Of a stretch of DNA of 64,000 bases, positions 36,438-56,451 are shown piece by piece. Position numbers and translations under genes: made by a program. The notes beneath the pieces were generated by a model that did not search any database, was not told the origin of the DNA, and was given only the letters and a program-made list of their open reading frames with translations. The stretch's first letter is position 1; each line of letters opens with the position of its first letter. This stretch comes from Pseudoxanthomonas spadix (GTDB lineage Bacteria > Pseudomonadota > Gammaproteobacteria > Xanthomonadales > Xanthomonadaceae). Location: the NCBI RefSeq assembly GCF_003703395.1, contig NZ_RDQN01000004.1, positions 248,001 through 312,000 on the forward strand, given 5' to 3'.

Positions 36438-36483
36438 TGTTCGCCTCGCGCCCGACTTGGCGCGGCTTCAGGGAGGAATGCGC

Positions 36484-39012: not shown

Positions 39013-39084
39013 AAATCAGTTGGCAGAAACCACGGGATTTTTGGCAAATAATGATCTTCTTCCGACCTTACCGGCCAAGTACGC

Positions 39085-41998: not shown

Positions 41999-42042
41999 GC
42001 GCTGCTGCTGAACGGACCCGCTTCTGGACCGAAAGGATGCCA

Positions 42043-43098
42043 ATGACCAGGCCACGCTTGACAGTGATCGACGATTCCTCTGTTGCCGACATCTCGGACG
42101 ACTTCCTGAACTACCAGTACGACGTGCTGGGCATTCGGGAATACATGAGCTCGACGGAGGTGACGGAAATCTGCGTCAACCGCCCGGGTGAGTTGTACCT
42201 GGAAGGTCGGGGAGGCTGGCGCCGGGTTGAAGTGCCGTCGTTGAGCTTCGAGCGTGCTCGCCAGTTCTGTACCGCGGTGGTGAACGAGAGCAACACCGGG
42301 CAACGGATCACCGACGCGGATCCGATGGTGTCGCTGACCTTCCCGACTGGCCAGCGCGCGCAGTTCGTGATCCCGCCGGCTTGCGATCCAGGCAAAGTCT
42401 CGATCACCATTCGCTTGCCGTCGCACCAGACGCGAACGCTCGACCAGTATCAGCAGGAGGGCTTTTTTGCCCAGATACTGGAGGAGAACCAGGCGCTGAC
42501 GCCGCATGATGAGGAATTGTTGGAGCTTCGCAGCAAGCGCGAGTACGCCGAGTTCTTTCGAAAGGCCGTGTTATACAAAAAGAATGTCGTCGTGGCGGGC
42601 GCCACGGGCAGCGGCAAGACCACTTTCATGAAATCCCTGGTTCACCACATCCCGCGCGACGAACGGCTGGTGACCATCGAGGATGCACGCGAACTGTTCA
42701 TTGAACAGCCCAACGTGGTGCATCTGCTGTATTCCAAGGGCGGCCAAAGCATGAGCAATGTCACTGCCAAGACCTGCATGGAAGCGTGCCTGCGTATGAA
42801 GCCTGATCGCATCATCCTGGCGGAGTTGCGTGGTGACGAGTCCTTCTATTTCATCCGCAATTGCGCTTCTGGTCATCCGGGATCCATTACCAGCTGCCAC
42901 GCCGGGAACATCAACCAGACCTGGGATCAGCTGGCATTGATGGTCAAGGCCTCGGCTGAAGGGGCTGGTCTGGAGTTCTCCGTCATCAAGCGTCTGCTGA
43001 TGATGACGATCGACATCGTGGTGCATATCAAGGCGCACGCCGGCAGCCGCTACATCACGGGCATTGACTTCACGCCCGATAGAAGTTTTCAAGAGTGA
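42043..43098 (+). CDS. virB11: T4SS ATPase VirB11
   Basis: A 351-residue hexameric ATPase. Walker A is GATGSGKT (from residue 186), the Asp box is VTIEDARELF, the Walker B region is RIILAELRGDE and the His box is SITSCHAGN. AAAGG at 42032-42036 favours ATG 42043 over ATG 42037. It energises pilus formation and substrate export with VirB4 and VirD4. Confidence 0.95.
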   Translation: MTRPRLTVIDDSSVADISDDFLNYQYDVLGIREYMSSTEVTEICVNRPGELYLEGRGGWRRVEVPSLSFERARQFCTAVVNESNTGQRITDADPMVSLTFPTGQRAQFVIPPACDPGKVSITIRLPSHQTRTLDQYQQEGFFAQILEENQALTPHDEELLELRSKREYAEFFRKAVLYKKNVVVAGATGSGKTTFMKSLVHHIPRDERLVTIEDARELFIEQPNVVHLLYSKGGQSMSNVTAKTCMEACLRMKPDRIILAELRGDESFYFIRNCASGHPGSITSCHAGNINQTWDQLALMVKASAEGAGLEFSVIKRLLMMTIDIVVHIKAHAGSRYITGIDFTPDRSFQE

Positions 43099-43225
43099 GC
43101 CGACGTACAGCCTCTCCGGCCTTCAGGTCGTACTCGCGCGCTGTCCTCCCGCTGGCGCTTGGGTTCAATCCAGCGGCTCCGTTGTGCGATGCGGCGAAAA
43201 TGTGACGTAATTCCTCATGAACGAA

Positions 43226-43278
43226 TTGACAATGCCAGCCGAGTCACCAACTATGATCTTGCCGGACCGGAATCCGGC
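43226..43278 (+). promoter_or_regulatory. Candidate second promoter of the virB operon, before virB1
   Basis: The 236-bp gap between virB11 and virB1 contains TTGACA (43226-43231) and TATGAT (43252-43257), both near consensus but 20 bp apart, longer than the usual 16-18. Directly after it is a perfect 6-bp hairpin (GCCGGA / TCCGGC, 43261-43278) that would lie in the leader RNA. This gap would split the operon into B7-B11 and B1-B6 parts. Confidence 0.4.
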
Positions 43279-43334
43279 GTAGCGCGTAACGCCTTCACGG
43301 TTCAACTAGGGACCAGCGACAGGGAGCATTTTCA

Positions 43335-44219
43335 ATGCTGTCAGCAATTGAAATGGCGCAGTGCCCGAATCTGGAAGTTCCCATCCAGGTGATGCGACAT
43401 GTCGTGGAAGTGGAGTCATCCTTCAATCCGTATGCCATCGGCGTCGTGGGTGGCGCGCTCGTTCGCCAGCCTGAAAACCTTGCCGAGGCGGTCGCGACGG
43501 CAAGGGATCTGGAGCAGCGCGGTTACAACTTTTCCGTGGGGCTGGCGCAGGTCAACCGTCATAATCTGGTCAAATATGGCCTGTCATCCTACGAGCAGGC
43601 GTTTTCCGTATGCTCCAATCTTCGGGCCGGTACCCGGATCCTCGCGGAGTGTCATAGCCGCGCCTCCGGCGATTGGGGCAAGGCATTCAGTTGCTACTAC
43701 TCCGGAAACTTCAGCACCGGCTATCAGAACGGATACGTGGACAAGGTTTTCGCGTCCATGCAAGCGGACAATCGCTCGCCCACTGGCGCAGGACTGGCCA
43801 TTGCCATGGCCCCGCCGCCCCGACGCCCGGATCGGCAAGATTCCCGTGCGATCAGCAAGAAGGAGTCGGTCTCCGAAGCGGACCTGACCTCTCAGGAGGT
43901 CGAGCGCCTCATCGATCCAGCGTTTGTCGGTGCGGCGGTTACGGGTCCCGCATTGTCTCAGACGGCCACGCCCGCGCTGCCGAACTCGGATCGGGTCCCC
44001 GCCGATCCGGTGTATCCACCCCCGTCTGGCAACGCGGGTACTGATGGCGTCGCCTCCGGGTCGGTTGCGGGCACACGGGATGATGGCCCAGTGGTTCTCG
44101 CTGCTGCGGTGCCCGCAAAGTCATTACCTCGGTCTGAAGCCATTGAAAGTAAAGCCGAGGTGGAAAGTTCTGCATCACCGCCTTCTCCGCCGGCGGTGGA
44201 TCAGGCGTTCGTGTTTTAA
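43335..44219 (+). CDS. virB1: T4SS lytic transglycosylase VirB1
   Basis: A 294-residue protein with an SLT domain in its first 140 residues (catalytic Glu27 in EVESSFNP, then NFSVGLAQVNRHNL and CYYSGNF). It opens peptidoglycan for channel assembly. The rest is a Pro/Ala/Ser-rich low-complexity tail. No clear signal peptide is visible at this start; an earlier start was not found. Confidence 0.88.
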   Translation: MLSAIEMAQCPNLEVPIQVMRHVVEVESSFNPYAIGVVGGALVRQPENLAEAVATARDLEQRGYNFSVGLAQVNRHNLVKYGLSSYEQAFSVCSNLRAGTRILAECHSRASGDWGKAFSCYYSGNFSTGYQNGYVDKVFASMQADNRSPTGAGLAIAMAPPPRRPDRQDSRAISKKESVSEADLTSQEVERLIDPAFVGAAVTGPALSQTATPALPNSDRVPADPVYPPPSGNAGTDGVASGSVAGTRDDGPVVLAAAVPAKSLPRSEAIESKAEVESSASPPSPPAVDQAFVF

Positions 44220-44310
44220 GAAGGCGGTCCGACGAGTTGTTTAAACCCATCGTGCGCAGCGCCCGGTCCCTGGACCGTCCTGCCGCATCATTTGATCGAG
44301 GAAACGACCC

Positions 44311-44733
44311 ATGAAAAATCGATTTTATTCGCAGGAACGGGCTGGCCAGGCCAGGACACTGGTTTCCGGCATGGGTATGGCAGTAACGTTTGTCGGTGCA
44401 TTGTTACTACCTGGGCTGGCCTTGGCCCAGAGTGAAGGCGGGGATTTCACCGCGACTGGTGAGACGGTTTGCGGATTCTTTGAAAACGTAAATGGTCTGC
44501 TCAATATCGCATCCATCGCCGTGGTGACGATCGCAGTGATATTTTCCGGCTATCAGATTGCGTTCAACCACAAGCGTGTCGGCGAAGTGGCCACCATCTT
44601 GATCGGAGGAGTGTTGATCGGGGCTGCAGGCCAGATTGCGCGGATGCTGCTGGGAGATGAGGGGGAGTCTTGCGGTTCAACAGGCGCCGACGCGCCGGCA
44701 GGCCTCGTTCTTTTTGTGCCTTGGCTGACGTAA
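44311..44733 (+). CDS. virB2: T4SS major pilin VirB2
   Basis: A 140-residue pilin precursor. A long signal peptide ends at LALAQS, and the mature part has two hydrophobic helices around NHKRVGE (IAVVTIAVIFSGYQIAF and ILIGGVLIGAAGQIA). It is followed by virB3 at 46 bp. Confidence 0.88.
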   Translation: MKNRFYSQERAGQARTLVSGMGMAVTFVGALLLPGLALAQSEGGDFTATGETVCGFFENVNGLLNIASIAVVTIAVIFSGYQIAFNHKRVGEVATILIGGVLIGAAGQIARMLLGDEGESCGSTGADAPAGLVLFVPWLT

Positions 44734-44778
44734 TCGTTGGTGCGTCGCGTCATAGGCAACAGGGCGTAGGGTGCGCAC

Positions 44779-45093
44779 ATGAACAAGAACGTCATGTTCC
44801 GTGGTTGTACTCGCCCGGCGATGTTCATGGGCGTGCCCTATGTTCCGTTCTTCATCGGGGCGGGTGGGTGCTTGTTGCTTGCGATGTACACCAACCTGTT
44901 TTACCTGCTGCTGATGCCTGTTGTCATCGGCATCATGCGGCAGATGGCCAGGCGCGACGAAATGATCTTCCGGCTCCTGGGATTGCGCCTGCAGATGCGC
45001 CTGCGGGTTCGCAATCTGAGGGAGCACCGAGGGGCATGGGTCTTCACTCCCAATTCCTACCGCAGTAAGCCTGCCGGGAGGGCCAGAAAATGA
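44779..45093 (+). CDS. virB3: T4SS protein VirB3
   Basis: A 104-residue inner-membrane protein with the family opening FRGCTRPAMFMGVPYVPF and two membrane helices, followed by a basic C-terminus (LRLQMRLRVRNLREHRG). It acts with VirB4. A 170-bp gap, unusually long for this pair, follows before virB4. Confidence 0.9.
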   Translation: MNKNVMFRGCTRPAMFMGVPYVPFFIGAGGCLLLAMYTNLFYLLLMPVVIGIMRQMARRDEMIFRLLGLRLQMRLRVRNLREHRGAWVFTPNSYRSKPAGRARK

Positions 45094-45263
45094 TGGGCTT
45101 CCGCGCATGGCGCCCTGGTCGCTCAACGGCCACCCGGGACTGAGTGGCCGGGCTGTCAAGCGGTGCGCACAGAGCAGCGCGTTCGCTTGCTCTGGCCACA
45201 CCAGAGCCAAAGCATGGCCGGCATCCCGGGCTATGCCGGACGGTTCAATCCTAGCGAGACGTT

Positions 45264-47735
45264 ATGTTCACTCCCGACACTGCCATTGGCGAATTTGTGC
45301 CCTATTCAAGCCATGTTGCGAGCTCCGTGGTCAAAACGACCGGCGGCGATTACATGCTGATCTGGCATCTGGAAGGACTGCCGTTCGTCGGTCGCGAGGA
45401 GTGGGAGCTCGAGCACAAGCACAACACATTCAACCGCATGCTGCAAACCTTGCGGGCTCCGGATTTCGTCAATGTCGCTTTCTGGGTGCATGACGTGCGG
45501 CGTCGCGGCCGCATCGGCACGCATAGCAAGTTCAAGCATCGCTTCAACCAGGAGTTGTCCGACGGCTATTTCGGGCAGTTGTCTTCGCAGAAGATCATGC
45601 GGAACGAGTTGTACCTGACATTGGTCTACCGACCGGTCGTGGGCGGCAAGGCCTTCGTGGAGAAGACGGCCAATACCGACCGCCTCAAGCTCATGCAGGA
45701 CCAGGCGGTGGCCAAGGTGCTGGAGCTTGCGAGCAATGTGGAGGCCGTGCTCAAGGACTACGCCCCTTATCGACTGGGAATGTACGAGGCCGCCAATGGC
45801 GTGGTCTTTTCAGAAACCCTGGAGTTCCTGGGCTACCTGCTCAACCGCGTCAATGAGCCGGTCCCGGTACTGCCCGCCTCGGTCAACGCCTATTTGCCGG
45901 TGAGCAAGCACACGTTCTCGTCCAAGACCGGCGACTACCTGATCACCACGCCCGACGGTATCAACCACTACGGTGCCATTCTCAACATCAAGGAGTATCC
46001 GGAGGGCACCTACCCCGGCATTCTCAATGGGTTGAAATACCTGGATTTCGAATACGTCGTGACCCATTCGTTCAGTCCGATGGGGCGCCAGGACGCATTG
46101 CGCGTGCTCGACCGCACCAAGGGCATGATGATCTCTTCCGGCGACAAGGCGGTCAGCCAGATCGTTGAACTCGATTACGCGATGGACCAGCTGTCCTCCG
46201 GCAACTTTGTCCTGGGCGAATACCACTTCATCATCGCCCTGTACGCCGACAGCCAGCCCCAGCTGCAGCAGCACATCGCCATTGCCCGCGCGGAACTGTC
46301 CAACGCCGGCTTCGTCTCGGCCAAGGAGGACCTGGCCGTCGCGGCCTCGTTCTATTCCCAGTTGCCCGCCAACTGGAAGTTCCGCACCCGCCAGGCGAAC
46401 GTGAGTTCGCTGAACTTCCTGGGCCTTTCGCCCCTGCACAATTTTGCTACCGGCAAGAAGGAAAACAACCCCTGGGGTGAATGCGTCACGACCCTGCAGA
46501 CCACCAACGGGCAGCCCTACTATTTCAATTTTCACGCCACCCACCCGGCGGAAAACTCGCTGGGTGAGAAGGCCATTGCCAATACCATGGTCATCGGCAA
46601 GTCGGGCACGGGCAAGACCGCGTTGATCAACTTCCTGCTCAGTCAGGTGCAGAAGTTCGAGCCGTCACCCACCATTTTTTTCTTCGACAAGGACCGCGGT
46701 GCGGAGATCTTCGTGCGCGCCTGCGGGGGCAACTATCTGGCGCTGGAAAATGGCCGCCCGACCGGCTTCAACCCCTTCCAGTGCGAGCGCAGCGAGGGCA
46801 ACATCCAGTTTCTGGCCGAGTTGGTCAAGCTGCTTGCGGCCAAGCGCTTTTACACGGCGCGCGAGGAGGAAGATATTTTTCGTGCGGTGGAAAACATCCT
46901 GGATACCCCGCCGCACCTGCGCACCATGACCAATTTCCAGAGAAGCCTGCCCAATATGGGTGATGACGGGCTGTACGCGCGCATACGGAAGTGGACTGCG
47001 GGCAATTCCCTGGGCTGGGTGTTCGATAACCCCATGGACATCATCGACCTGCAGAAGGCCAACATCATCGGGTTCGACTACACCGACTTGATCGACAATG
47101 CCGAGGTGCGGGCTCCTGTCATAAACTACCTCCTGCATCGCCTGGAGGAATTGATCGATGGCCGCCCGCTGATCTATGTGATGGATGAGTTCTGGAAGAT
47201 CCTCGACGGTGCTGGCGGTTTGAAGGAGTTTGCCAAGAACAAGCAAAAGACCATCCGCAAGCAGAATGGCCTGGGTATCTTCGCCACCCAGAGCCCCGAG
47301 GATGCGCTGTCCAGCGATATTTCGGCCGCGCTCATCGAGCAAACCGCCACCTTGATTCTGCTACCCAATCCCAACGCCAGCCGCGAGGACTACATGCAAG
47401 GCCTCAAACTGACCGAAGCTGAATACCAAGTGGTCGTCAGCCTCGACGAGCGCTCGCGCTGCTTCCTGGTCAAGCAGGGCCATGGCTCAGTCGTGTGTCA
47501 GCTCAACTTGCGCGGTCTGGACGATGCCCTGTCGGTCATCTCTGCGTCCACCGACAACATCGAGATCATGCATCGCGTCCTGGAGGAGCAGGCCGCCATC
47601 CACGGCGTGGCGCAGAGCGAGCTGACCCCCGAGCAGTGGCTGGACGCCTTCTACGAGAACCGCAAGGGCTCGGGCAAAGGCGGGTTGAAGTCTTCTGGCC
47701 GCCGTGGGGGGGCGTCGGTGAGGATGGCCTCGTAG
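45264..47735 (+). CDS. virB4: T4SS ATPase VirB4
   Basis: An 823-residue ATPase. The N-terminal CagE/TrbE-like domain contains HLEGLPFVGREEWELEH; the motor domain carries Walker A GKSGTGKT (G445-T452) and Walker B YVMDEFWKILD (near residue 640). FATQSPEDAL is the conserved Gln motif. It powers assembly of the inner-membrane complex and pilus biogenesis. Confidence 0.95.
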   Translation: MFTPDTAIGEFVPYSSHVASSVVKTTGGDYMLIWHLEGLPFVGREEWELEHKHNTFNRMLQTLRAPDFVNVAFWVHDVRRRGRIGTHSKFKHRFNQELSDGYFGQLSSQKIMRNELYLTLVYRPVVGGKAFVEKTANTDRLKLMQDQAVAKVLELASNVEAVLKDYAPYRLGMYEAANGVVFSETLEFLGYLLNRVNEPVPVLPASVNAYLPVSKHTFSSKTGDYLITTPDGINHYGAILNIKEYPEGTYPGILNGLKYLDFEYVVTHSFSPMGRQDALRVLDRTKGMMISSGDKAVSQIVELDYAMDQLSSGNFVLGEYHFIIALYADSQPQLQQHIAIARAELSNAGFVSAKEDLAVAASFYSQLPANWKFRTRQANVSSLNFLGLSPLHNFATGKKENNPWGECVTTLQTTNGQPYYFNFHATHPAENSLGEKAIANTMVIGKSGTGKTALINFLLSQVQKFEPSPTIFFFDKDRGAEIFVRACGGNYLALENGRPTGFNPFQCERSEGNIQFLAELVKLLAAKRFYTAREEEDIFRAVENILDTPPHLRTMTNFQRSLPNMGDDGLYARIRKWTAGNSLGWVFDNPMDIIDLQKANIIGFDYTDLIDNAEVRAPVINYLLHRLEELIDGRPLIYVMDEFWKILDGAGGLKEFAKNKQKTIRKQNGLGIFATQSPEDALSSDISAALIEQTATLILLPNPNASREDYMQGLKLTEAEYQVVVSLDERSRCFLVKQGHGSVVCQLNLRGLDDALSVISASTDNIEIMHRVLEEQAAIHGVAQSELTPEQWLDAFYENRKGSGKGGLKSSGRRGGASVRMAS

Positions 47736-47840
47736 GCAAGCACCTGTGCAGCGGCCGCCTTGGGGCTGTTCGGGTCGAGACGTTCCGGTTCGTCATCACG
47801 CAAATCCGGAATTCATTGAAGACATGAAGGAAAGTCAACC

Positions 47841-48653
47841 GTGAACATCAAAGATACAAAGCGGCTGGATCGCAAGCCCCTCCTCTTGCTGCTCCTGGCG
47901 TCCTTGGCGACGCTCGCCCCCGCTGCCAGTGCGCAAGTGATCGTGTCGGACCCCGTGACGGAGGACGCTACCACCAGCAGCTTCGCAGGGGAGCTTGGGG
48001 AATACGCCGAGACCGCCGACCGCTACATGCGGCAAGTCGAGGAGTATCAGAAGCAATTGGAGCGCTATACCAGCACGATCAGTGACCTGACCAGTCTCAC
48101 AGAAAATCTCAACGGCCTCGGTCTGCCCTCTGGGCAGAAGCTCGAAAAAGTCGACGAAAGCGCGGGCGTTGCCAGCGCCTGCAATATCAGCACCGGAATT
48201 ACGGACCTGTTTTCATTCCAGAATTTGACCAAGGCGCTGGGGATCGGTGAGGAGAGTGGACTGGATGAGCAGAAGACAATCTGCGCCATGCGCGTCACCA
48301 TGCAGAACCGCAAGTACAACGAGTCGGTCGATTTCATGAATGAGACGATGCCATCGATCCAGAACACCATGAAAGAGTTGATAGCCAGCATCAAGGGTAA
48401 GGGCGAGACTCCCGGCGCCCAGGATCAGCACCAGACCGACACGCCGGCCATCGATGCCGACACCCAGAAGAAGATCGAAGAGTTTCGTTCCCGGCAGGAC
48501 CAATACAATGCCCTGATCTCGGCGCTGAACGATCGGCAAGTCATTCTCGCCCAGCAGCTGATGCGAGGGAAAAGCAAGAGCATCACTGGCGAGGTCATCG
48601 GCGTGGTGGTGCAGAGCGCCGCACTCGAGGCCGCTTTGCACTACAACAAGTAA
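47841..48653 (+). CDS. virB5: T4SS minor pilin VirB5
   Basis: A 270-residue exported protein: signal peptide of about 31 residues (LLLLLLASLATLAPAASAQ), then mostly helical sequence (EYAETADRYMRQVEEYQKQLERY) typical of VirB5, two Cys residues (SACNIS, TICAM) and a C-terminal helix. The VirB5 call rests on position and helical pattern. Confidence 0.83.
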   Translation: MNIKDTKRLDRKPLLLLLLASLATLAPAASAQVIVSDPVTEDATTSSFAGELGEYAETADRYMRQVEEYQKQLERYTSTISDLTSLTENLNGLGLPSGQKLEKVDESAGVASACNISTGITDLFSFQNLTKALGIGEESGLDEQKTICAMRVTMQNRKYNESVDFMNETMPSIQNTMKELIASIKGKGETPGAQDQHQTDTPAIDADTQKKIEEFRSRQDQYNALISALNDRQVILAQQLMRGKSKSITGEVIGVVVQSAALEAALHYNK

Positions 48654-48787
48654 TCGGAAAACCTGAGGCCTCGGGGTGATCGGCGTGGGTTGGCTGGCCA
48701 GATCTATGAAGAACCAGGAAGCGGTGGCGGGGTGACCGCCTGCCTCGAACGCAGGCCGGAGCCGCACCAAGGGAACAACCCGAGGGA

Positions 48788-49945
48788 ATGATTGACATGC
48801 TGACTTTCGCGACAATGGGTGTGTTGGACGGACTTGGGAGTTGGTTCCGTCCCCAGGCGTCGCTGGGGGAGTTCTACTTTTTCCATGCGATCCTCGATTA
48901 CCTGACCGAGGCGATCAGCGATTTCGGCTACGGCATGATGGGGCGGATGATGGATTGGGTGGGCGCGATCGTCCTGACCCTGTTGACGCTCTGGGTGCTG
49001 ATTCAAGGCTTCCGCATCGTGACCGGCCAGTCGCGCGATTCGATGATGGTGCTGGTGGCCAACGCAGCCAAGGCGACGCTGATCGTGTCGGTGGCGGTGT
49101 CGATGGGGATTTTTGGCGCGGACATGCACCAGTGGCTGACCCAGAAGCTACCGGACGAGATCACCGCGCAGGTGACGGGCGAGGACGAGTCGGCGGCCGA
49201 TCAGATCGACGAGAACATGGCGTGGATGTCGGTGGCGCTGACGACGATCAACGCGGTGGACGTGGTGGACAACCCGACGCTGGCCGATGAGAAGACCCGG
49301 GCGATGATCTTCGCCGGGATCGGGACCGGCGGTCCGGCGCTGGTGGCCGGAGCGATGCTGTTGCTGTACCAGGTGGCGATCGCTTTGTTCGTGGGCCTGG
49401 GCCCGTTGTTCATCCTGTGCCTGCTGTTCGACGTCACCAAGTCGCTGTTCCAGAAGTGGCTGTTCTATGGGCTCGGGACGATGTTCTCGATGGCGGTACT
49501 GGCGGCGATGACGAGCATCGCGCTGAAGATGGTGACGGCGGTGTCCGAGGCGTTCTGGGGTGCTGCGCTGGTGGGCAGCTTCCTGGACATGGATGCAGTG
49601 GACGGCATCAGCAGCCAGGCGATGCAGCAGGGCGGGCTGGGACTGCTGCTGACGACGTTGATCATCACCGCCCCGCCGATGGCAGCGATGTTCTTCCAGG
49701 GGACGCTGGGGCAGTTTGCAGCGTACTCGACGATGGGCCCGCACCTGGCCCAGCAAGGGGGCGGCGGCGCGCCGGGCGGGCACCCGGGCAATGTGGGTGG
49801 CGGGTATGCACAGCAGCCGGAACGAAATACGACTGGTCCGGGAGTTGGCGCAATACCGAGCCGAATTGCAGGTGCCCCAGCGACTCCCAGCGCTTCCGAA
49901 GGTCAAGGCACATTCGGTGCAGCAAACAAGCTGGACAGGGGATGA
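48788..49945 (+). CDS. virB6: T4SS polytopic inner-membrane protein VirB6
   Basis: A 385-residue TrbL/VirB6 protein with five to six hydrophobic helices (IVLTLLTLWVLIQGF, LVAGAMLLLYQVAIALFVGL, PLFILCLLFDVTKSLF, MAVLAAMTSIALKM). A Gly/Pro/Gln-rich tail (about residues 315-385) follows. Its 3' two-thirds, from 49189 on, is repeated almost exactly at 52437-53068. It ends the set of core channel genes. Confidence 0.93.
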   Translation: MIDMLTFATMGVLDGLGSWFRPQASLGEFYFFHAILDYLTEAISDFGYGMMGRMMDWVGAIVLTLLTLWVLIQGFRIVTGQSRDSMMVLVANAAKATLIVSVAVSMGIFGADMHQWLTQKLPDEITAQVTGEDESAADQIDENMAWMSVALTTINAVDVVDNPTLADEKTRAMIFAGIGTGGPALVAGAMLLLYQVAIALFVGLGPLFILCLLFDVTKSLFQKWLFYGLGTMFSMAVLAAMTSIALKMVTAVSEAFWGAALVGSFLDMDAVDGISSQAMQQGGLGLLLTTLIITAPPMAAMFFQGTLGQFAAYSTMGPHLAQQGGGGAPGGHPGNVGGGYAQQPERNTTGPGVGAIPSRIAGAPATPSASEGQGTFGAANKLDRG

Positions 49946-49998
49946 TGGAAACTTCGGATAAGGGGATGAACGTGTCAGCCAACCTGAGTGGAGGTTCC

Positions 49999-50529
49999 AT
50001 GAAATTGCGAATGGCATTGGCGTGCGGGCTGTTGCTGAGCAGTGATTGGGGGTTGGCGCAGAACCAGGCCCAGCGGAACCTGCAGCAACAGCAGTGGCAA
50101 CTGGAGCAGACGCGTCGAGGCTATCAGGCACAGCAGGATGCTTATGCAGCGGCAGCGCAGCAGCAGCTGCCGCCCCCGCCACGCCCCACGGGAAAGTGGA
50201 TCAAGACATGGGGGGCGATTGCGGCGAACGATAAAGGCGATGGTGGTGTTGCCATAGGCAAGCTCACAAAGAAAGAAGCTGAGGCAGAAGCAGTGCGACA
50301 GTGCCTCACCTGGGGGGGTGGGGGCTGCAAGCCGACGTTGGTCTATCAAAATCAGTGCGCCGCGGGTGCAGTTCCCAACGCTGGTTCATCAAATGGCAGA
50401 GCAGCGTCCGCATCCTCACCCGACCTGGCTAAACAGGTCGCGTTAAAGGCATGCAGTGACGTCAATGGCGGAGCCACCTGCAAAATCATTTACTCCGCCT
50501 GCAGCGACCCGATCTTCAGGCATTACTGA
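49999..50529 (+). CDS. DUF4189 family exported protein (unit A)
   Basis: A 176-residue protein with a signal peptide (MKLRMALACGLLLSSDWGLAQ), a Gln-rich linker and a DUF4189 domain: KTWGAIAANDKGDGGVAIG, AVRQCLTWGGGGC, LVYQNQCAAGAV, then ALKACSDVNGGATCKIIY and C-terminal CSDPIFRHY. The regular Cys pairs suggest disulfides in the periplasm. GGAGG 5 nt upstream sets ATG 49999; ATG 49966 is a weaker option. Its function is unknown; it lies between virB6 and a toxin-immunity pair and is duplicated with them. Confidence 0.83.
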   Translation: MKLRMALACGLLLSSDWGLAQNQAQRNLQQQQWQLEQTRRGYQAQQDAYAAAAQQQLPPPPRPTGKWIKTWGAIAANDKGDGGVAIGKLTKKEAEAEAVRQCLTWGGGGCKPTLVYQNQCAAGAVPNAGSSNGRAASASSPDLAKQVALKACSDVNGGATCKIIYSACSDPIFRHY

Positions 50530-50593
50530 TGGTAGGTTGTAGGCCGAGCTCGGGTTGGCCGTGCAGGATGCAGTGAGTGAGGAGGCGTTGGAC

Positions 50594-51346
50594 ATGGCAG
50601 TAAAGGTAGTGCGCCGATGCTGGTGCTGGCTTGCCGGCCTGTATGTGCTGGTGATACTGGGCGGGTGCGGACGGCAGGTTGGCTCCGAAGCTGCTGGAGA
50701 ACATACTGTGGCGCCGGCTTCGGCCGGTTCGGCAACCTCGGAGCAAGACGGCGCCACGGCGCCATCGCCGCCGAAAGCAGTGGACAGTCGAAGCGGACTT
50801 GCGGAAGGGACAAGCGTGGCGCCGCAGGAAGTGGCAGGCTTGGTTGCCCAGGACGATCAGGTGGTGGCGCAAGCCAATGAGGATCTGGATGGCGACGGAG
50901 CCGTCGATGCAGTTCTCATCGTGCGTCACCAATCCACCGAGAGCGGAGCCAATCCGTGCGAGTTGCTCGTCTTGCAGCGCCAAGCGGGGCGACTGGCTGT
51001 TTCCGCCCGAAGCGGCCATGTCGTTGAGTGCCTCTACAACACTGTGGCCCGCAATGCCGCGAGCTTGCAAGACAATTTAAAGGTAGCCCGAGGGGAGATC
51101 ATCTACAGCAACCAGCGTGAAAAAGGGACTTCAATCTACCGATTCGATTATGACCAGGCCAAGCAGGCATGGTTTCTCAGCGAGGCAATCAATTCGTATC
51201 CACAGTACAACGAGGCCGCTGACAAGGTCGATCTTGTGCGCGAGGCCGTGAGTTATCCAAAGGATGTTGGCTGGACGACACTGGACCTGTTCGATCCTGA
51301 CGCCCTCGAAGAGGCGTTCGCGAAGAACAGGAAGATCATGGAGTGA
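50594..51346 (+). CDS. Lipoprotein, putative immunity protein for the GH19-like effector (unit A)
   Basis: A 250-residue lipoprotein with lipobox ILGGC (Cys near residue 25), a Ser/Ala/Pro linker and a domain with a calcium-loop-like motif DLDGDGAVDAVLIV near residue 103. This architecture and its position just before the effector recall periplasmic X-T4SS immunity lipoproteins such as XAC2610, which block lysozyme-like effectors. The inference is positional. GGAGG at 50581 sets ATG 50594. The effector follows after 15 bp. Confidence 0.72.
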   Translation: MAVKVVRRCWCWLAGLYVLVILGGCGRQVGSEAAGEHTVAPASAGSATSEQDGATAPSPPKAVDSRSGLAEGTSVAPQEVAGLVAQDDQVVAQANEDLDGDGAVDAVLIVRHQSTESGANPCELLVLQRQAGRLAVSARSGHVVECLYNTVARNAASLQDNLKVARGEIIYSNQREKGTSIYRFDYDQAKQAWFLSEAINSYPQYNEAADKVDLVREAVSYPKDVGWTTLDLFDPDALEEAFAKNRKIME

Positions 51347-51361
51347 ACAGGAGAAAGCGCA

Positions 51362-52252
51362 ATGCCGCAATTCAATGAAAGCTCTGCGTTGTTGTTCACG
51401 ACGGCAGTGGACTCGGGAATCTGCTCGCCGGAGGAGTTGGCCAACCTCATGGGGAACGCGACGGTGGAAACAGGGCGCTTCCGGCGCATGCACGAGAGCT
51501 TTGCCTATTCGTCGGCTGACAATGTGATTGCGGCGGTTGCGTCTGCCGATGACCGTTTCACGTGGCAAGAGGTCGAGGCGGCGGTGGCCAGCGGGGACCC
51601 CAAGCAGATTGCCAAAGTGATGTACGAGAATCGTGCAGATCTTGGAAATGCCGAGCTGGGGGACGGTTGGAGGTTCCACGGCCGCGGCTATTTGCAGTAC
51701 ACCGGTCGGGATAACTACGAGCGCTATGGCGAGCGTTTTGGCGTGGATCTTGCCAATAATCCTGACTTGGCAGCCGATCCGCAGACCGCGGCCCGGTTGG
51801 CCGTCGCCTATTGGCAGGATCGGGTGCCGGAGGCCAGCCGGACGGATCCGGTGGCAGCCGGACGCATCATCAATGGCGGTGACAACGGCAAGGATGCGCG
51901 CGTGGCGGCTTCGCGGGACTGGATCGGGACGATCACGCCGGAACTGGTCGAAGACGTGCGGACCGGCAGGGTGACGCTGGAGCAGCTTGCGACGCTGGGG
52001 AGCAATGTGCGCAACCCCACGGGGATGAGGCAGGTGGACAGCGTGCTGGCGCGCCCGGACGGCCAGGGCTTGTTTGCGGTGCAAGGGCAACTGGGGGACC
52101 CGGCTTCGCAGCGGGTGTACGTGGACCGGGCGCAGGCGGTGGGCCAGGACGTGCAGGCCAGCACCCGGCAGCTGGAGGCGCTGGCGCAAGTGCAGGACCC
52201 GGTGCTGGCCCAAGCGCAAGCCCAAGCCCAAGCCCAGCAGCCGACGCGCTGA
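51362..52252 (+). CDS. X-T4SS effector: GH19-like muramidase/chitinase fold with partial XVIPCD
   Basis: A 296-residue protein without signal peptide, as expected for a T4SS substrate. The first 200 residues form a GH19/lysozyme-like domain: catalytic Glu36 in NATVETGRF, then GWRFHGRGYLQYTGRDNY and GRIINGGDNGKD. From Met222 to the end, 75 residues match the C-terminal part of the XVIPCD secretion domain of the unit B effector (GMRQVDSVLARPDGQGLF, LGDPASQRVYVDRAQ) with a Gln/Ala repeat tail. The first 50 or so XVIPCD residues, with the DPxHPxH-type motif, are missing. Its likely target is peptidoglycan of rival bacteria; whether the short signal suffices for VirD4 binding is uncertain. Confidence 0.82.
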   Translation: MPQFNESSALLFTTAVDSGICSPEELANLMGNATVETGRFRRMHESFAYSSADNVIAAVASADDRFTWQEVEAAVASGDPKQIAKVMYENRADLGNAELGDGWRFHGRGYLQYTGRDNYERYGERFGVDLANNPDLAADPQTAARLAVAYWQDRVPEASRTDPVAAGRIINGGDNGKDARVAASRDWIGTITPELVEDVRTGRVTLEQLATLGSNVRNPTGMRQVDSVLARPDGQGLFAVQGQLGDPASQRVYVDRAQAVGQDVQASTRQLEALAQVQDPVLAQAQAQAQAQQPTR

Positions 52253-52436
52253 GCGAGGACATCAGGACGATGAAGATGGCAGGGACATGGGTGCCACAGG
52301 CCAAATGTCGGCGGTCGCGCCGAATGCGGCGTGCGGGCGCAGGATCGGCCATGTACCGTTCTGCCCCGACGGTGCGCGGCTGCCGGCCAGTTCATGCCCG
52401 CGGCAGGTCCTGTCGTCGGTGTGCGATGTGGCGTTG

Positions 52437-53205
52437 GTCGGCGGCCGATCAGATCGACGAGAACATGGCGTGGATGTCGGTGGCGCTGACGACGATCAAC
52501 GCGGTGGACGTGGTGGACAACCCGACGCTGGCCGATGAGAAGACCCGGGCGATGATCTTCGCCGGGATCGGGACCGGCGGTCCGGCGCTGGTGGCCGGAG
52601 CGATGCTGTTGCTGTACCAAGTGGCGATCGCTTTGTTCGTGGGCCTGGGCCCGTTGTTCATCCTGTGCCTGCTGTTCGACGTCACCAAGTCGCTGTTCCA
52701 GAAGTGGCTGTTCTATGGGCTCGGGACGATGTTCTCGATGGCGGTACTGGCGGCGATGACGAGCATCGCGCTGAAGATGATGACGGCGGTGTCCGAGGCG
52801 TTCTGGGGTGCTGCGCTGGTGGGCAGCTTCCTGGACATGGATGCAGTGGACGGCATCAGCAGCCAGGCGATGCAGCAGGGCGGGCTGGGACTGCTGCTGA
52901 CGACGTTGATCATCACCGCCCCGCCGATGGCAGCGATGTTCTTCCAGGGGACGCTGGGGCAGTTTGCAGCGTAATCGACGATGGGCCCGCACCTGGCCCA
53001 GCAAGGGGGCGGCGACGCGCCGGGCGGGCACCCGGGCAATGTGGGTGGCGGGTATGCACAGCAGCAGCCAGGAAGGGATGTGGCTGGGCCAGGGATCAGG
53101 ACAGACTCAGCGGGTGGGGCGAGAATATTGGGTGTTCCGGCGAATCCCAGCGCCTCCGAAGGTCAGGGCACGTTCGGTGCAGCAAACAAGCCGAACAGGG
53201 GATGA
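52437..53205 (+). pseudogene. Partial virB6 copy with a premature stop (unit B)
   Basis: This is a near-exact copy of the last two-thirds of virB6, lacking the first 134 codons. TAC (Tyr) at the matching place in virB6 is TAA at 52972-52974, which ends the frame before the Gly/Pro tail; the tail itself remains readable up to a stop at 53203-53205. An ATG at 52270 opens a chimeric 234-codon frame into the fragment, so a membrane fragment with several helices might still be made. The lack of the N-terminus and the nonsense codon argue for a non-functional by-product of duplication. Confidence 0.88.
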
Positions 53206-53258
53206 GGGGAACTTCGGATCAGGGGATGAACGTGTCAGGCAACCTGAGCGGAGGTTCC

Positions 53259-53768
53259 ATGAAATTGCGGATGGCATTGATATCCGTGTTGCTAGCTGCT
53301 GGTGCAGGCGATGCGCTGGGCCAGCAGCGTCCTGGAGGCAACGGACCGTTGCCGGGTGATCCTGGTTATGGCGGGGGCGCGAGGCAGCAGCAGATGCCGC
53401 CCCCGCCACGCCTCACAGGAGGGTGGGTCACGAACTGGGGGGCGATCGCGCAGGGAACCAACGGACTGGGTGGTGTTGCGGAAGGGCAGCTTTTCAGGGT
53501 GACCGCGGAGAATGAGGCGGTGAGTCAATGCACCCGAGGGGGAGGAATGAACTGCAAGTTAATTTTCACATATTCCAATCAGTGCGTTGCCTTGGCTCAC
53601 CCGGGAGGTAGGGCAACGGCGGATTCTATAGGGCTGGCGGAAGAGCGGGCTAAAAATGTGTGCAATGAGAGAAATTCTGCCGGTACTTGCCGAATCGTCT
53701 ACTCCGCCTGCAGCCTCCCGTACTTCGCGCGTGCTGTTCTCCCATTGGAAAGACCTGGGGGGCGATAG
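53259..53768 (+). CDS. DUF4189 family exported protein (unit B), divergent
   Basis: A 169-residue protein whose leader MKLRMAL and ribosome site match unit A, but whose body differs: signal peptide ending GDALGQ, Pro-rich linker, then DUF4189 motifs NWGAIAQGTNGLGGVAEG, AVSQCTRGGGMNC, TYSNQCVALA and CRIVYSACSLPYF. It then reads on into 16 extra residues of foreign character (ARAVLPLERPGGR) before TAG, where sequence of an older DUF4189 copy starts, so the natural end may be lost. Function unknown. Confidence 0.78.
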   Translation: MKLRMALISVLLAAGAGDALGQQRPGGNGPLPGDPGYGGGARQQQMPPPPRLTGGWVTNWGAIAQGTNGLGGVAEGQLFRVTAENEAVSQCTRGGGMNCKLIFTYSNQCVALAHPGGRATADSIGLAEERAKNVCNERNSAGTCRIVYSACSLPYFARAVLPLERPGGR

Positions 53769-53875
53769 AGCTGGCTAAAGAGGTCGCGTTAAAATCATGC
53801 AGTGACGTCAATGGCGGAGCCGCCTGCAAAATCATCTACTCCGACTGCAGCGACCCGATCTTCAGGCATTACTGA
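53747..53875 (+). pseudogene. Deletion remnant of a second DUF4189 gene
   Basis: In a different frame from the preceding gene, 42 codons read GKTWGAI joined directly to ELAKEVALKSCSDVNGG and ending CSDPIFRHY. In unit A the same two pieces are separated by about 70 residues. This is therefore an internally deleted relic of a unit-A-type DUF4189 gene, left behind when the divergent DUF4189 gene replaced it. Confidence 0.8.
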
Positions 53876-53932
53876 TGGCAGGTTGCAGGCTGAGCCCGGG
53901 TTGGCCGTGCAGGATGCAGTGAGGAAATGGCG

Positions 53933-54784
53933 ATGGATAGAACAAAAAAGGTAGTGCGCCGAAGCCGATACTGGCTTGCCGGGGCTTGTGGACTGGCACT
54001 GTTGGCTGGGTGCAATCAGTCCCCTTCCGATGGAACGGCGGAGCCGGTTGCGGTGAGCGACGGCGGATCACCGGTTGCGGCACAGACCAGCACGCCGGAC
54101 AAGACGACACAGCCGCTGCCGGCTGCTGATTCCCCCGCCGTGCAGGCGGCAATCAATGGGTTGATGAATGCCGCGTACGGCGCGGCGCATTACGATGCCG
54201 ACCGGGCATGCTGGATGCTCTCGTTCGAGACGCCCAACGATACGCTTGACTACTGCATGAAGCCTGCATCCCCGCAGGTGGTCGCCAGCGAAGACGGCCC
54301 GCAAGTCTATGTGCTGGCCTACAGCGATCCGGATGCCGGGGTGTATTCGCAGGTCGATCCGGGGCTGATGGGATTGCTGGCGGCATCACTGAAGACCGAT
54401 GGCAGCTGGGCAGTCCTGGCTTCCAGTCCGGCCATCGATGCGGGGCAGTCTGGGGATTGTGCCTGCCGCGATGCCCGTCTTCTCCAGGTGGGTCCATCCC
54501 GATATGGCTGGGTGTCGACCGAAGGCGGCGTCTGGCAGGGGGTGGCTGTCCAGAATTATGTGATCCAGGTTCCTGTGTATGGAGTGTTTCGTAATGTTTC
54601 GAGAATTCCAAGGATCACGGAAGGAAAACAGGACGAGATCAACATCATCGACGTAGACCGTCAGGGTAATGCTGTGGCGGGCATGTACCCATTGAGGGTG
54701 ACCCGCAAGCGCGGCGATGCCGTGGTGGAGACCAGAACCGTGATGTTTGACGCCGGGACCGGTACCTATCCATGGAGGCCGTGA
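53933..54784 (+). CDS. Lipoprotein, putative immunity protein for the lysozyme-like effector (unit B)
   Basis: A 283-residue lipoprotein with lipobox LLAGC. The leader (KVVRR, then YWLAG) matches the unit A lipoprotein, but after the lipid anchor the sequence is unrelated: no DxDGDG motif, a paired Cys (GDCACRDA) and a C-terminal beta-rich region with ending TYPWRP. Position before the second effector and periplasmic anchoring suggest immunity against it. ATG 53933 is 8 nt after GAGG; ATG 53927 is too close. No family recognised. Confidence 0.72.
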   Translation: MDRTKKVVRRSRYWLAGACGLALLAGCNQSPSDGTAEPVAVSDGGSPVAAQTSTPDKTTQPLPAADSPAVQAAINGLMNAAYGAAHYDADRACWMLSFETPNDTLDYCMKPASPQVVASEDGPQVYVLAYSDPDAGVYSQVDPGLMGLLAASLKTDGSWAVLASSPAIDAGQSGDCACRDARLLQVGPSRYGWVSTEGGVWQGVAVQNYVIQVPVYGVFRNVSRIPRITEGKQDEINIIDVDRQGNAVAGMYPLRVTRKRGDAVVETRTVMFDAGTGTYPWRP

Positions 54785-54831
54785 GACCACGGCCCCACTC
54801 ACTGGACTTCTGGACTTAAGGGAACAAGCAC

Positions 54832-56202
54832 ATGGCAAGGATTGACGAGCGCTGGAATGGGCACCGCGAAGAGTTGGAGGCTGCCGCGCGAACGGCGGGC
54901 ATCGACGTGGGCGTCATGGTCAAGATCGCGGGGTTCGAATCCGGCTTCAACCCTGGCGCCCGGCCGATCGCGGTGAGCCATCCCGAGAACAATACGGTGC
55001 GGCAGTTTGACGGGACGATGGCGGTGTCTTCGGCTTACGGGTACGGCCAGTTTCTGGATGGCACCTGGCAGGAGATGATCAACAGGTATGGGGAGAAGTA
55101 TGACGTAGCGGGAGCGGCAGACATGACCCGCACTCAGGCCAATGCGCCAGAACTTCGCCAGGACACGCGCCTGCAGGCGGCGATGCTGGCTGAGTTCACG
55201 CGCGAGAACATTGCGCGCGCGTCGCAGATCGGCGGCAGTGACGTGGCGGCCAATGTCTATGCGATGCACAACCTGGGCACTGGCGACGGGCCCAGGTTCC
55301 TGGAGGCATTGCGCGACAATCCGGATGCGCGCGTGGGCAGTGTGCTGAGCGACAGGGTGATTTCCGGGAACCCCGCGCTCTATGGGGATGGAAGCAGGAC
55401 CATCGCGCAGGCCTATGCGGCAATGGGCGAGAAGATGAATCAGTACGAGCCCTATGCCCAGGAGGCGGTGCAGGGACTCCCCAGCGGTACCTTGAGTGCC
55501 GGTGGGCCAACGGCCCCGGTACGCAACCCCATGGCCGACGGCATGCTGGTGCAGAAGGAGCACGGCCAAGCGGTCAAGTCGATGCAGGAAAAGCTGTCCG
55601 GTCTGGGTTACGTCGGCACGGACGGCAAGCCACTGGTTACGGACGGCGACTTCGGCCCAAGCACGCGGCAGGCGGTGGAACAGTTCCAGCGCGACCAAGG
55701 GCTGACGGTGGACGGCAAGGCCGGGCCGAAGACCCTGGAAGCGCTGGCGGCGGCGGTGCAGGCCAGAGAGCCGGCCACCATGGCCGACACACCCGCAGCG
55801 CCGAGCATGGCCGACCCGGGGCATCCGGACCATGCCCGCTACCGCGACGTGCTGGAGAAGCTGCAGACCCTGGAACAGCAGCGCAATCAGGGCGGATTGC
55901 CGGCGCTGTTTGCCGACCGCCAGCAGCTGGAGAACGCGGCCGGGCAGGTGGTGTTCGAGTCCAGGGTCTCGGGCATGAGGCAGGTGGACAGCGTGCTGGC
56001 GCGGCCGGACGGCCAGGGCCTGTTCGCGGTGCAGGGGCAACTGGGGGACCCGGCCGCGCAGCGGGTGTACGTGGACCGGGCGCAGGCGGTGGGCCAGGAC
56101 GTTCAGGCCAGCACCCGGCAGCTGGAGGCGCTGGCGCAAGTGCAGGACCCGGTGCTGGCCCAGGCCCAAGCCCAAGCCCAAGCCCAGCAGCCGACGCGCT
56201 GA
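54832..56202 (+). CDS. X-T4SS effector: lysozyme-like + peptidoglycan-binding + complete XVIPCD
   Basis: A 456-residue protein without signal peptide. Residues 20-200 form a lysozyme/transglycosylase-like domain (putative catalytic Glu36 in AGFESGFNPGA; AYGYGQFLDGTW; NVYAMHNLG). Residues about 240-310 are a PG_binding_1 domain (VKSMQEKLSGLGYVG, GDFGPSTRQAVEQFQRDQGL). From D328 on lies a full XVIPCD: DPGHPDHARYRDVL, GQGLFAVQGQLGDPAAQ and the Ala/Gln repeat tail. This is the classical build of an antibacterial X-T4SS effector, recruited by VirD4 through the XVIPCD. The gene is 47 bp after its putative immunity gene. Confidence 0.92.
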   Translation: MARIDERWNGHREELEAAARTAGIDVGVMVKIAGFESGFNPGARPIAVSHPENNTVRQFDGTMAVSSAYGYGQFLDGTWQEMINRYGEKYDVAGAADMTRTQANAPELRQDTRLQAAMLAEFTRENIARASQIGGSDVAANVYAMHNLGTGDGPRFLEALRDNPDARVGSVLSDRVISGNPALYGDGSRTIAQAYAAMGEKMNQYEPYAQEAVQGLPSGTLSAGGPTAPVRNPMADGMLVQKEHGQAVKSMQEKLSGLGYVGTDGKPLVTDGDFGPSTRQAVEQFQRDQGLTVDGKAGPKTLEALAAAVQAREPATMADTPAAPSMADPGHPDHARYRDVLEKLQTLEQQRNQGGLPALFADRQQLENAAGQVVFESRVSGMRQVDSVLARPDGQGLFAVQGQLGDPAAQRVYVDRAQAVGQDVQASTRQLEALAQVQDPVLAQAQAQAQAQQPTR

Positions 56203-56451
56203 GCCGGGACATCAGGAGCATGAGGATGCCGGGGTGCAGCAGGCGGGATGTCCGCCGTCGCGCCGGATGCGGCGTGCGGGCGCAGGATCGGCCATGGTCC
56301 GTCCTGTCTGGACTGGAGCTGACCTGTCTGCTTTCGGGCATCTACGTCCTGCAGGTCCGCCGGGTTGGGTCACTGGCTCGGCAGGATAATGCTTCAAGTT
56401 GCGTGATAAAAACGAAACATTTTTCGCGTATCTCGACAAATGGAGACGGAC

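What the first reader, a model, noticed from the sequence alone, without database searches (positions are those of the whole stretch)
49189..56310. Tandem duplication that varies toxin-immunity pairs between constant flanks in a bacterial-killing T4SS
Two adjacent units share virB6 3' DNA, a DUF4189 gene start, the lipoprotein leader, the XVIPCD end of the effector and 3' flank. The lipoprotein bodies and toxin domains in between differ completely (GH19-like against lysozyme-like plus peptidoglycan-binding). This looks like a recombination cassette: constant DNA on both sides would let toxin-immunity cores be exchanged by homologous recombination. The near-identity of the virB6 parts (about four or five mismatches in 630 bp) suggests a recent event.
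Basis: partly seen in the sequence, partly recalled or inferred. Interest (0 to 1): 0.82.

Follow-up and report, generated by a model that had tools for sequence, protein, structure and literature searches.

The report
Displaced virB6–DUF4189 arrays in killing T4SS
In bacteria that kill neighbours with a type IV secretion system, new variants of a small exported protein (DUF4189) appear to be inserted again and again behind the channel gene virB6 while older ones are kept further along with a broken piece of virB6, which makes this protein a testable candidate for the unknown factor that stops sister cells killing each other.

Summary
In detail: 49189-52436 and 52437-56313 are two units with near-identical virB6 3' DNA (620 of 624 bases), similar ends and unrelated lipoprotein/effector cores. 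Comparison with 100 other loci shows that the recurrent unit is not the toxin-immunity pair but [virB6 3' end + variable VirB6 tail + DUF4189 gene]. Thirty of 101 loci carry displaced virB6 fragments: 53 interior 3' pieces against one 5' piece. Within a locus the virB6 pieces match (median 94% DNA), whereas the DUF4189 genes are as different as genes of different loci (65% against 66%). In 10 of 21 close locus pairs, the DUF4189 next to intact virB6 in one sits at a displaced place in the other. Displaced copies are mostly intact (117 of 144) and conserved (dN/dS about 0.15). I infer an array built like orphan CDI/Rhs or T6SS immunity arrays, but on a channel gene. I propose, untested, that DUF4189 is a self-exclusion factor; protection from fratricide here is reported as uncharacterised (Oka 2024, passages). 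Extra virB6 copies are in print, the link to DUF4189 not in what I saw.

The parts
48788..49945 (+). virB6, full length (385 aa); constant core to about 49812, variable C-terminal tail after it
   Evidence: PF04610 95.2 bits; HMM core 48863-49762, 60-aa tail
49999..50529 (+). DUF4189 gene no. 1 (176 aa), exported by signal-peptide-like start
50594..51346 (+). lipoprotein 1, presumed immunity protein of effector 1
   Evidence: position upstream of the effector; lipobox-like leader (read from sequence, motif recalled); three proteins found in the database search; no Pfam family over cut-off
51362..52252 (+). effector 1: GH19 domain + C-terminal half of XVIPCD
   Evidence: PF00182 34.0 bits, PF20410 47.4 bits at model 48-101
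52253..52436 (+). 3' flank of unit 1; 52285-52370 similar to the flank of unit 2, 52371-52436 without a match beyond 13 bases in the window; junction 52436/52437
52437..53205 (+). displaced virB6 3' piece (pseudogene: first third missing, premature stop)
   Evidence: 620 of 624 bases identical to 49189-49812; one stop inside
53259..53768 (+). DUF4189 gene no. 2 (169 aa)
   Evidence: PF13827 56.9 bits
53768..53875 (+). leftover 3' end of a DUF4189 no. 1-like gene
   Evidence: within the stretch 93% identical to 50422-50577; HMM match to model 84-117
53927..54784 (+). lipoprotein 2, presumed immunity protein of effector 2
   Evidence: 18 proteins found, 11 of the 12 with a source name from Xanthomonadaceae genera; beta-rich model, pLDDT 78.9, no specific structural match
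54832..56202 (+). effector 2: SLT-like + PG_binding_1 + full XVIPCD
   Evidence: SLT_4 below its cut-off
56203..56313 (+). 3' flank of unit 2
36457..48653 (+). rest of the T4SS (virD4, virB8-11, virB1-5 by order and by matches in other loci)
   Evidence: profiles grown from eight of these ORFs match genes in other loci; names by order, recalled; virB2, virB3 and virB7 not tested

Best explanation
SHOWN: downstream of virB6 lies a displacement array whose repeating unit is [virB6 3' piece - variable VirB6 tail - DUF4189 gene], and the window holds two such units that happen to carry a lipoprotein/effector pair each. INFERRED MECHANISM: incoming DNA of another strain recombines homologously in the virB6 core, and its other end joins, usually by illegitimate recombination, inside the resident virB6. 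The incoming tail and DUF4189 become the active ones beside a complete virB6; the old tail and DUF4189 are pushed downstream behind a virB6 remnant. INFERRED FUNCTION: DUF4189, exported to the periplasm, protects the cell against T4SS attack by kin with the matching VirB6 type (exclusion), and old DUF4189 genes are kept because kin with the old type are still around. Confidence about 0.85 in array and displacement, about 0.35 in exclusion; 0.5 for the whole.
For: Fragments: 53 interior 3' virB6 pieces against one 5' piece in 101 loci; virB4, virB8, virB9, virB10 and virB11 show no partial copy away from a locus edge (virB5 six, virB1 22 scored partial). 49 of 52 3' pieces and 88 of 97 full copies with enough sequence behind them are followed by DUF4189 within 1 kb. 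virB6 pieces best match their own locus (45 of 55) while DUF4189 of multi-copy loci best match another locus (129 of 183). In 38 in-locus unit pairs, virB6 median 93.6% DNA, DUF4189 65.2%, random between-locus DUF4189 66.4%. In 21 close locus pairs median identity is 0.92 in the last 300 bases of the VirB6 core, 0.45 in the tail, 0.50 after it; the two first DUF4189 genes have no blastn match over 80% of their length in 18 of 21, and in 10 of these 18 the first DUF4189 of one sits displaced in the other (four independent groups). L099's active 1375-base unit is L098's fourth, displaced unit (93.5%). Tail and DUF4189 travel together: the four pairs with DUF4189 at least 0.9 identical have tails 0.77-1.00 identical, while 90 pairs with core at least 0.90 but DUF4189 below 0.6 have median tail identity 0.31. 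Displaced DUF4189 intact in 117 of 144, dN/dS 0.15. DUF4189 co-occurs with virB6: 27 of 27 against 0 of 11 genomes in the genus, counting the weak virB6 match of G012 as absent; 165 both, 26 virB6 only, 10 DUF4189 only, 194 neither in the family. Oka 2024 (PMC10933484, passages): X-Tfi proteins are not needed against attack by sister cells and the protection is uncharacterised. A VirB6-type protein is the exclusion target in F (TraG-TraS; passage of PMC12624023).
Against: No experiment. A Xanthomonas genome paper reports two truncated virB6 copies in X. [quoted passage not shown] that genome was not among my loci. My reading of hydropathy and loop charges places the VirB6 tail on the cytosolic side, as the review reports for A. 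tumefaciens and B. suis (passage), whereas DUF4189 is exported; the R388 structure shows only two VirB6 helices in the membrane and was built to residue 272 (passages), so the side is open. Of nine full virB6 copies without DUF4189, seven keep an ordinary tail, so the tail does not need DUF4189. Tail-DUF4189 coupling may be linkage only. 26 virB6 genomes lack DUF4189 and 10 have DUF4189 without virB6; one DUF4189 trio lies on a Rhizobium plasmid with no T4SS gene annotated within 12 kb, though the plasmid is typed as conjugative, MPF_T. Remnant identity to the intact gene does not fall steadily with distance, so the order of insertion is not simply readable. 13 of 51 remnants share their start with another of the same locus, so some units were copied or added by homologous recombination. 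Purifying selection does not single out DUF4189: virB6 pieces against their own full gene give a similar dN/dS (0.16; full against full 0.05).
Confidence: 0.5

Rival explanations
1. Silent-cassette library: displaced virB6 3' pieces with other tails are donors for switching the VirB6 tail and DUF4189, by gene conversion or by deletion between the virB6 repeats, as proposed for orphan cdiA-CT modules. DUF4189 would be an exposed, variable T4SS accessory rather than an immunity protein.
For: Direct virB6 repeats, many at 90-99% identity, sit ready for recombination; several pieces keep an open tail; reloading from orphan modules is discussed for CDI (PMC3150448, passages).
Against: A number of tail pieces are frameshifted or lost, the window's piece has a premature stop, and many loci hold more DUF4189 genes than virB6 copies and pieces, which fits retention of DUF4189 better than retention of tails.
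Confidence: 0.2
2. Positional accident: virB6 is the last T4SS gene before a variable island, so any recombination that renews the island uses virB6 as its left arm; tail and DUF4189 are hitchhiking first residents without a joint function.
For: virB6 is followed by variable genes in the loci examined; tail-DUF4189 coupling is expected from linkage alone.
Against: Arbitrary cargo would be expected after remnants, yet 49 of 52 are followed by DUF4189; DUF4189 keeps a low dN/dS also where displaced and is largely confined to virB6-positive genomes.
Confidence: 0.2
3. DUF4189 is an immunity protein against a secreted effector encoded elsewhere, and arrays are ordinary orphan effector immunity as in T6SS.
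For: Array form and retention match V. cholerae T6SS immunity arrays (PMC5361080, abstract and section 13).
Against: Known X-T4SS immunity genes usually sit upstream of their effector (PMC6536674 section 14); here DUF4189 is tied to virB6, and the lipoprotein holds the immunity place; immunity proteins were not needed against sister attack in X. citri.
Confidence: 0.15
4. One reading: a toxin-immunity cassette exchanged by homologous recombination between two constant flanks.
For: True of the window and two other loci (L045, L127); effector 1 is joined to the middle of an XVIPCD, a direct sign of core exchange; L097 and L098 share 3' flanks of several hundred bases.
Against: Only 3 of 53 gaps between a DUF4189 and the next virB6 3' piece hold an effector; 3' flanks are shared in only 45 of 295 unit pairs.
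Confidence: 0.2

Closest known systems
Orphan cdiA-CT/cdiI and rhs-CT/rhsI modules (PMC3150448, passages)
   Same: [quoted passage not shown] pieces match the local gene upstream of the variable part and foreign genes after it.
   Different: The variable gene here encodes a T4SS channel protein, not a toxin; the variable part is a short tail; no toxicity or immunity shown.
T6SS effector-immunity displacement arrays of Vibrio cholerae (PMC5361080, abstract and section 13)
   Same: Successive insertion with retention of old partner genes downstream; array members resemble other strains' genes; homology-facilitated illegitimate recombination proposed.
   Different: There the displaced gene is the effector; here it is the 3' end of a structural secretion gene, and the retained gene is DUF4189.
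Entry exclusion in conjugative T4SS: TraG-TraS of F (passage of PMC12624023); ConG-YddJ of ICEBs1 (pairing recalled; the passages do not state it)
   Same: A VirB6-type protein of the donor is the partner of a protein in the recipient that blocks transfer to like cells.
   Different: Known cases concern DNA transfer; DUF4189 is not an exclusion family known to me, and no interaction is shown here.
X-T4SS locus of Xanthomonas citri: virB6-xac2611-xac2610-xac2609 in one transcript (PMC7286519, passages)
   Same: Same gene order as window unit 1: virB6, small gene, immunity gene, effector (GH19 per PMC6536674 section 15).
   Different: No displaced copy described in the passages read; that xac2611 is DUF4189 was not checked by sequence here.
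Extra virB6 copies noted in genome papers: truncated copies in X. fuscans 4834-R and X. citri 306 (PMC3826837), four copies in the X. euvesicatoria 85-10 cluster (PMC10432156), duplicates in Lysobacter (PMC4657364); passages only
   Same: Multiplied or truncated virB6 in the same group of bacteria.
   Different: Those passages name neither DUF4189 nor an array; one reads its copies as duplication and decay, and the X. citri pieces are said to be N-terminal.
Rv1813c of Mycobacterium tuberculosis (PMC10269737, passages; PDB 7nhz)
   Different: No T4SS link in the passages read; function there concerns host mitochondria.

Membership tests
X-T4SS effector/immunity pair (X-Tfe/X-Tfi) | effector with C-terminal XVIPCD | tested here: met
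   PF20410 over cut-off in both effectors; effector 1 only model 48-101
X-T4SS effector/immunity pair (X-Tfe/X-Tfi) | lipoprotein gene directly upstream | tested here: met
   positions 50594-51346 and 53927-54784; lipobox read from sequence, motif recalled
X-T4SS effector/immunity pair (X-Tfe/X-Tfi) | lipoprotein neutralises the effector | not testable with these tools
   no assay; structure of lipoprotein 2 gave no specific match
Displaced orphan-module array (CDI/Rhs/T6SS type) | 3' pieces of the active gene downstream, 5' pieces absent or rare | tested here: met
   53 against 1 interior pieces in 101 loci; a paper reports N-terminal pieces in X. citri 306, not in my set
Displaced orphan-module array (CDI/Rhs/T6SS type) | array members resemble genes of other strains rather than each other | tested here: met
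   129 of 183 DUF4189; 10 of 21 close pairs with the first gene displaced in the partner
Displaced orphan-module array (CDI/Rhs/T6SS type) | variable part is toxic and the partner gene gives immunity | not testable with these tools
   VirB6 tails are short and low in complexity by eye; no toxin domain in the Pfam scan of the window's VirB6
T4SS entry-exclusion system | partner gene next to a VirB6-type gene and type-matched to it | tested here: inconclusive
   adjacency met (88 of 97); type matching seen but linkage could explain it
T4SS entry-exclusion system | protein in the recipient blocks transfer from like donors | not testable with these tools
   needs competition assays
DUF4189 (PF13827) | profile score over curated cut-off and the Rv1813c fold | tested here: met
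   [not shown]
Integron-like cassette array | integrase and attachment sites between cassettes | not tested
   no search for an integrase or attC sites was made; 38 of 51 remnants begin at a virB6 position not shared in their locus, which does not suggest a fixed site

The most novel reading that the evidence does not exclude
VirB6's hypervariable tail and DUF4189 form a polymorphic self-recognition pair of the bacteria-killing T4SS. DUF4189 in the recipient's periplasm recognises the attacking machine (its VirB6 type) and blocks delivery of all effectors at once, and displaced DUF4189 genes are an inherited list of lineages the cell is protected from. This would be the uncharacterised protection against fratricide in X-T4SS bacteria.
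Probability: 0.3. Interest if true: 0.93.

Novelty: new variant of a known kind. Interest (0 to 1): 0.77.

Why it matters
X. citri cells lacking many effector/immunity pairs are still not killed by sister cells, and the authors call the protection still to be characterised (PMC10933484, passages). The arrays point to one small gene next to virB6 as a candidate, so the question becomes a simple knock-out and competition test. It would also be the first case known to me (recalled knowledge) of an orphan-type array on a structural channel gene rather than a toxin gene, linking conjugative exclusion and bacterial warfare. On print: the library searches gave no title or abstract start that describes virB6 pieces with DUF4189, and the three papers that name DUF4189 do so outside this setting in the passages seen. 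Extra or truncated virB6 copies themselves are in print (passages). Most listed papers were not read in full, and most subscription papers and all bioRxiv preprints are outside the library.

Tried and rejected
Tandem duplication followed by divergence: rejected because virB6 pieces stay at a median of 94% while DUF4189 sits at the between-locus level. The protein-identity column is unreliable (zeros from a poor alignment setting) and was not used; one of its 38 pairs (L102, 15322) had no alignable DUF4189 and counts as 0; the one pair against the trend is L058.

Limits: named loci are the 80 best VirB6 matches of 230 confirmed stretches, so they lean to close relatives; five duplicate loci were dropped before counting; loci are counted, not genomes, and a few genomes give two; many assemblies are drafts, though L081 is a complete sequence; close pairs are not independent (six of 21 come from four Stenotrophomonas loci; the ten displacement pairs fall in four groups); at the script's own 88% line, the first DUF4189 was the same in one of 21 pairs and different in 20, and two of those 20 are 78% and 87% identical; a DUF4189 has far more chances to match another locus than its own; the co-occurrence test is not corrected for phylogeny; dN/dS is a simple pairwise count and displaced copies may have spent part of their history beside virB6.
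Full report
WHAT IS IN THE WINDOW. The window is 248001-312000 of contig 21 of a 3.37 Mb draft genome. A T4SS cluster runs from 36457 to 49945 and ends with virB6. Behind it lie two units. Unit 1: DUF4189 no. 1, lipoprotein 1, effector 1 (GH19 + half XVIPCD). Unit 2: a virB6 3' piece, DUF4189 no. 2, a leftover DUF4189 3' end, lipoprotein 2, effector 2 (SLT-like + PG-binding + XVIPCD). The two units form a mosaic: virB6 core 620 of 624 bases, tail middle 56%, tail end to DUF4189 start 90%, DUF4189 proteins 75 of 176 residues, DUF4189 3' end 93%, lipoprotein and effector cores unrelated, XVIPCD end 94%.

THE COMPARISON. I fetched 27 regions downstream of virB6 from same-genus genomes and 78 named loci with up to 10 kb on each side, and ran profile HMMs grown from the window's proteins over all of them. 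After dropping five duplicate loci, 101 loci remain, the window included. DUF4189 follows 88 of the 97 full virB6 copies with enough sequence behind them. Thirty of 101 loci carry one or more displaced virB6 pieces: 53 interior 3' pieces, three internal pieces and one 5' piece; virB4, virB8, virB9, virB10 and virB11 show no partial copy away from a locus edge (virB5 shows six and virB1 twenty-two matches scored as partial, which I read as sequence divergence, untested; virD4 was not tallied). 49 of 52 testable 3' pieces are again followed by DUF4189. Xanthomonas floridensis (L102) has the most virB6 pieces seen, and the complete sequence of S. maltophilia D457 (L081) also has an array, so draft assembly is not the cause. 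The median distance from a DUF4189 to the next virB6 3' piece is 210 bases; only the window, L045 and L127 have effectors in that gap, while L089 and L107 have one before a further full-length virB6. The general unit is thus virB6 3' end plus DUF4189; the window is a rare, richer form.

WHY IT IS NOT DUPLICATION PLUS DRIFT. In 38 in-locus unit pairs the virB6 DNA is alike (median 93.6%) but the DUF4189 DNA is at 65.2%, the level of random pairs from different loci (66.4%). virB6 pieces find their best match in their own locus (45 of 55), DUF4189 genes of multi-copy loci in another locus (129 of 183). Between close loci (virB6 at least 88% identical, 21 pairs) median identity is 0.92 in the last 300 bases of the core and 0.45 in the next 140. 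The two first DUF4189 genes have no blastn match over 80% of their length in 18 pairs and are 78-91% identical in three; in ten of the 18 the first DUF4189 of one locus stands at a displaced place in the other, at 91-99% identity. L099 carries at its active place a 1375-base stretch that is the fourth unit of L098 (93.5%); L085 (S. pennii) carries at its active place a 1772-base stretch that is displaced in L087 (S. chelatiphaga; 87.9%, DUF4189 97%), although the full virB6 genes of these two are only 72% alike. This is the signature of successive insertion in front with retention of the old.

HOW IT PROBABLY FORMS. Left end: homologous recombination in the virB6 core (indicated by the constant arm). 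Right end: 38 of 51 remnants start at a virB6 position not shared with another remnant of the locus, as expected for illegitimate joining; 13 share it. Homology-facilitated illegitimate recombination, proposed for V. cholerae T6SS arrays (PMC5361080, section 13), gives this pattern; it is inferred here. Later units can be added or shuffled by ordinary recombination through the repeats, as L097 and L098 with shared 3' flanks suggest. In the window, the leftover DUF4189 3' end and the half XVIPCD are two more junctions of this sort.

THE TAIL. After the VirB6 core comes a tail, about 30-70 residues long in most loci and rich in small and polar residues by eye, that differs from unit to unit. Among 123 units of 85 loci, the four pairs with nearly identical DUF4189 (0.9 or more) have tails 0.77-1.00 identical, even where the virB6 core differs (L087/L085: tail 1.00, DUF4189 0.98, last 394 core bases 0.87); the 90 pairs with core at least 0.90 but DUF4189 below 0.6 have a median tail identity of 0.31, random pairs 0.20. 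Tail and DUF4189 are thus inherited as one block. Linkage alone could do this; seven of nine DUF4189-free full VirB6 proteins keep a tail.

ARE THE DISPLACED GENES ALIVE? 117 of 144 displaced DUF4189 genes are intact against 89 of 89 in first place. Pooled dN/dS is 0.15 for 14 pairs both displaced, 0.11 for 15 pairs with one displaced, and 0.14 for four pairs in first place; virB6 pieces against their own full gene give 0.16, against 0.05 between full genes, so a low value alone does not prove that a displaced gene is in use. 206 of 212 DUF4189 proteins begin like a Sec signal peptide by a simple score of my own. The family largely goes with this virB6: 27 of 27 against 0 of 11 genomes in the genus (one of the 11, G012, has a weak virB6 match at E 8.5e-4), and 165 both, 26 virB6 only, 10 DUF4189 only, 194 neither in 395 genomes of the family.

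WHAT IS IN PRINT. Truncated and extra virB6 copies have been noted: a truncated and a complete copy in X. fuscans 4834-R and two truncated copies in X. citri 306 said to be N-terminal (PMC3826837, passage), four copies in the X. euvesicatoria 85-10 cluster (PMC10432156, passage), duplicates in Lysobacter (PMC4657364, figure legend passage). These passages mention no DUF4189 and no displacement. The N-terminal report runs against my 3'-piece count and should be checked in that genome.

VERDICT. Real and recurrent; reader partly right. By form it belongs with displaced orphan-module arrays (CDI/Rhs, T6SS), in a variant built on a secretion-channel gene. Whether it is an exclusion system is open and directly testable.

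Noticed in passing
window 51362-52252: Effector 1 carries only the second half of the XVIPCD (model 48-101) joined straight to the GH19 domain; whether this suffices for secretion is unknown.
   Followed up: partly
window 56440-56784: Small exported-looking gene with a weak TrbM match (18.7 bits, cut-off 21) directly after the array.
   Followed up: no
L141 10572-12354 (Rhizobium plasmid pMK-2, CP041205): Three DUF4189 genes in a row, the best 47.5% identical to the window's, with no T4SS gene annotated within 12 kb; the plasmid is typed conjugative, MPF_T.
   Followed up: partly
L054 2004-4268 (G030 contig 4): A second virB6 in this genome has a 461-residue C-terminal extension and no DUF4189 within 1 kb behind it.
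   Followed up: no
G360 contig 1, 2252140-2275969; also G288 and G297: Several full-length virB6 genes a few kb apart in one locus, possibly the same process with whole genes instead of pieces.
   Followed up: no
L071, L078, L085 and L107: Minus-strand genes next to the virB6 locus: L071, L078 and L107 have two or three diverged DUF4189 copies, L085 two effectors, on the minus strand.
   Followed up: no
protein P0004 (98% to lipoprotein 2): Near-identical lipoprotein in an assembly labelled Sphingobium MAG, probably mis-binned DNA of a relative of this host.
   Followed up: no
own genome, seven XVIPCD places: Five further XVIPCD places outside this locus, on contigs 14, 20 (two), 23 and 25; the one on contig 14 lies in an open frame of only 142 aa.
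   Followed up: no
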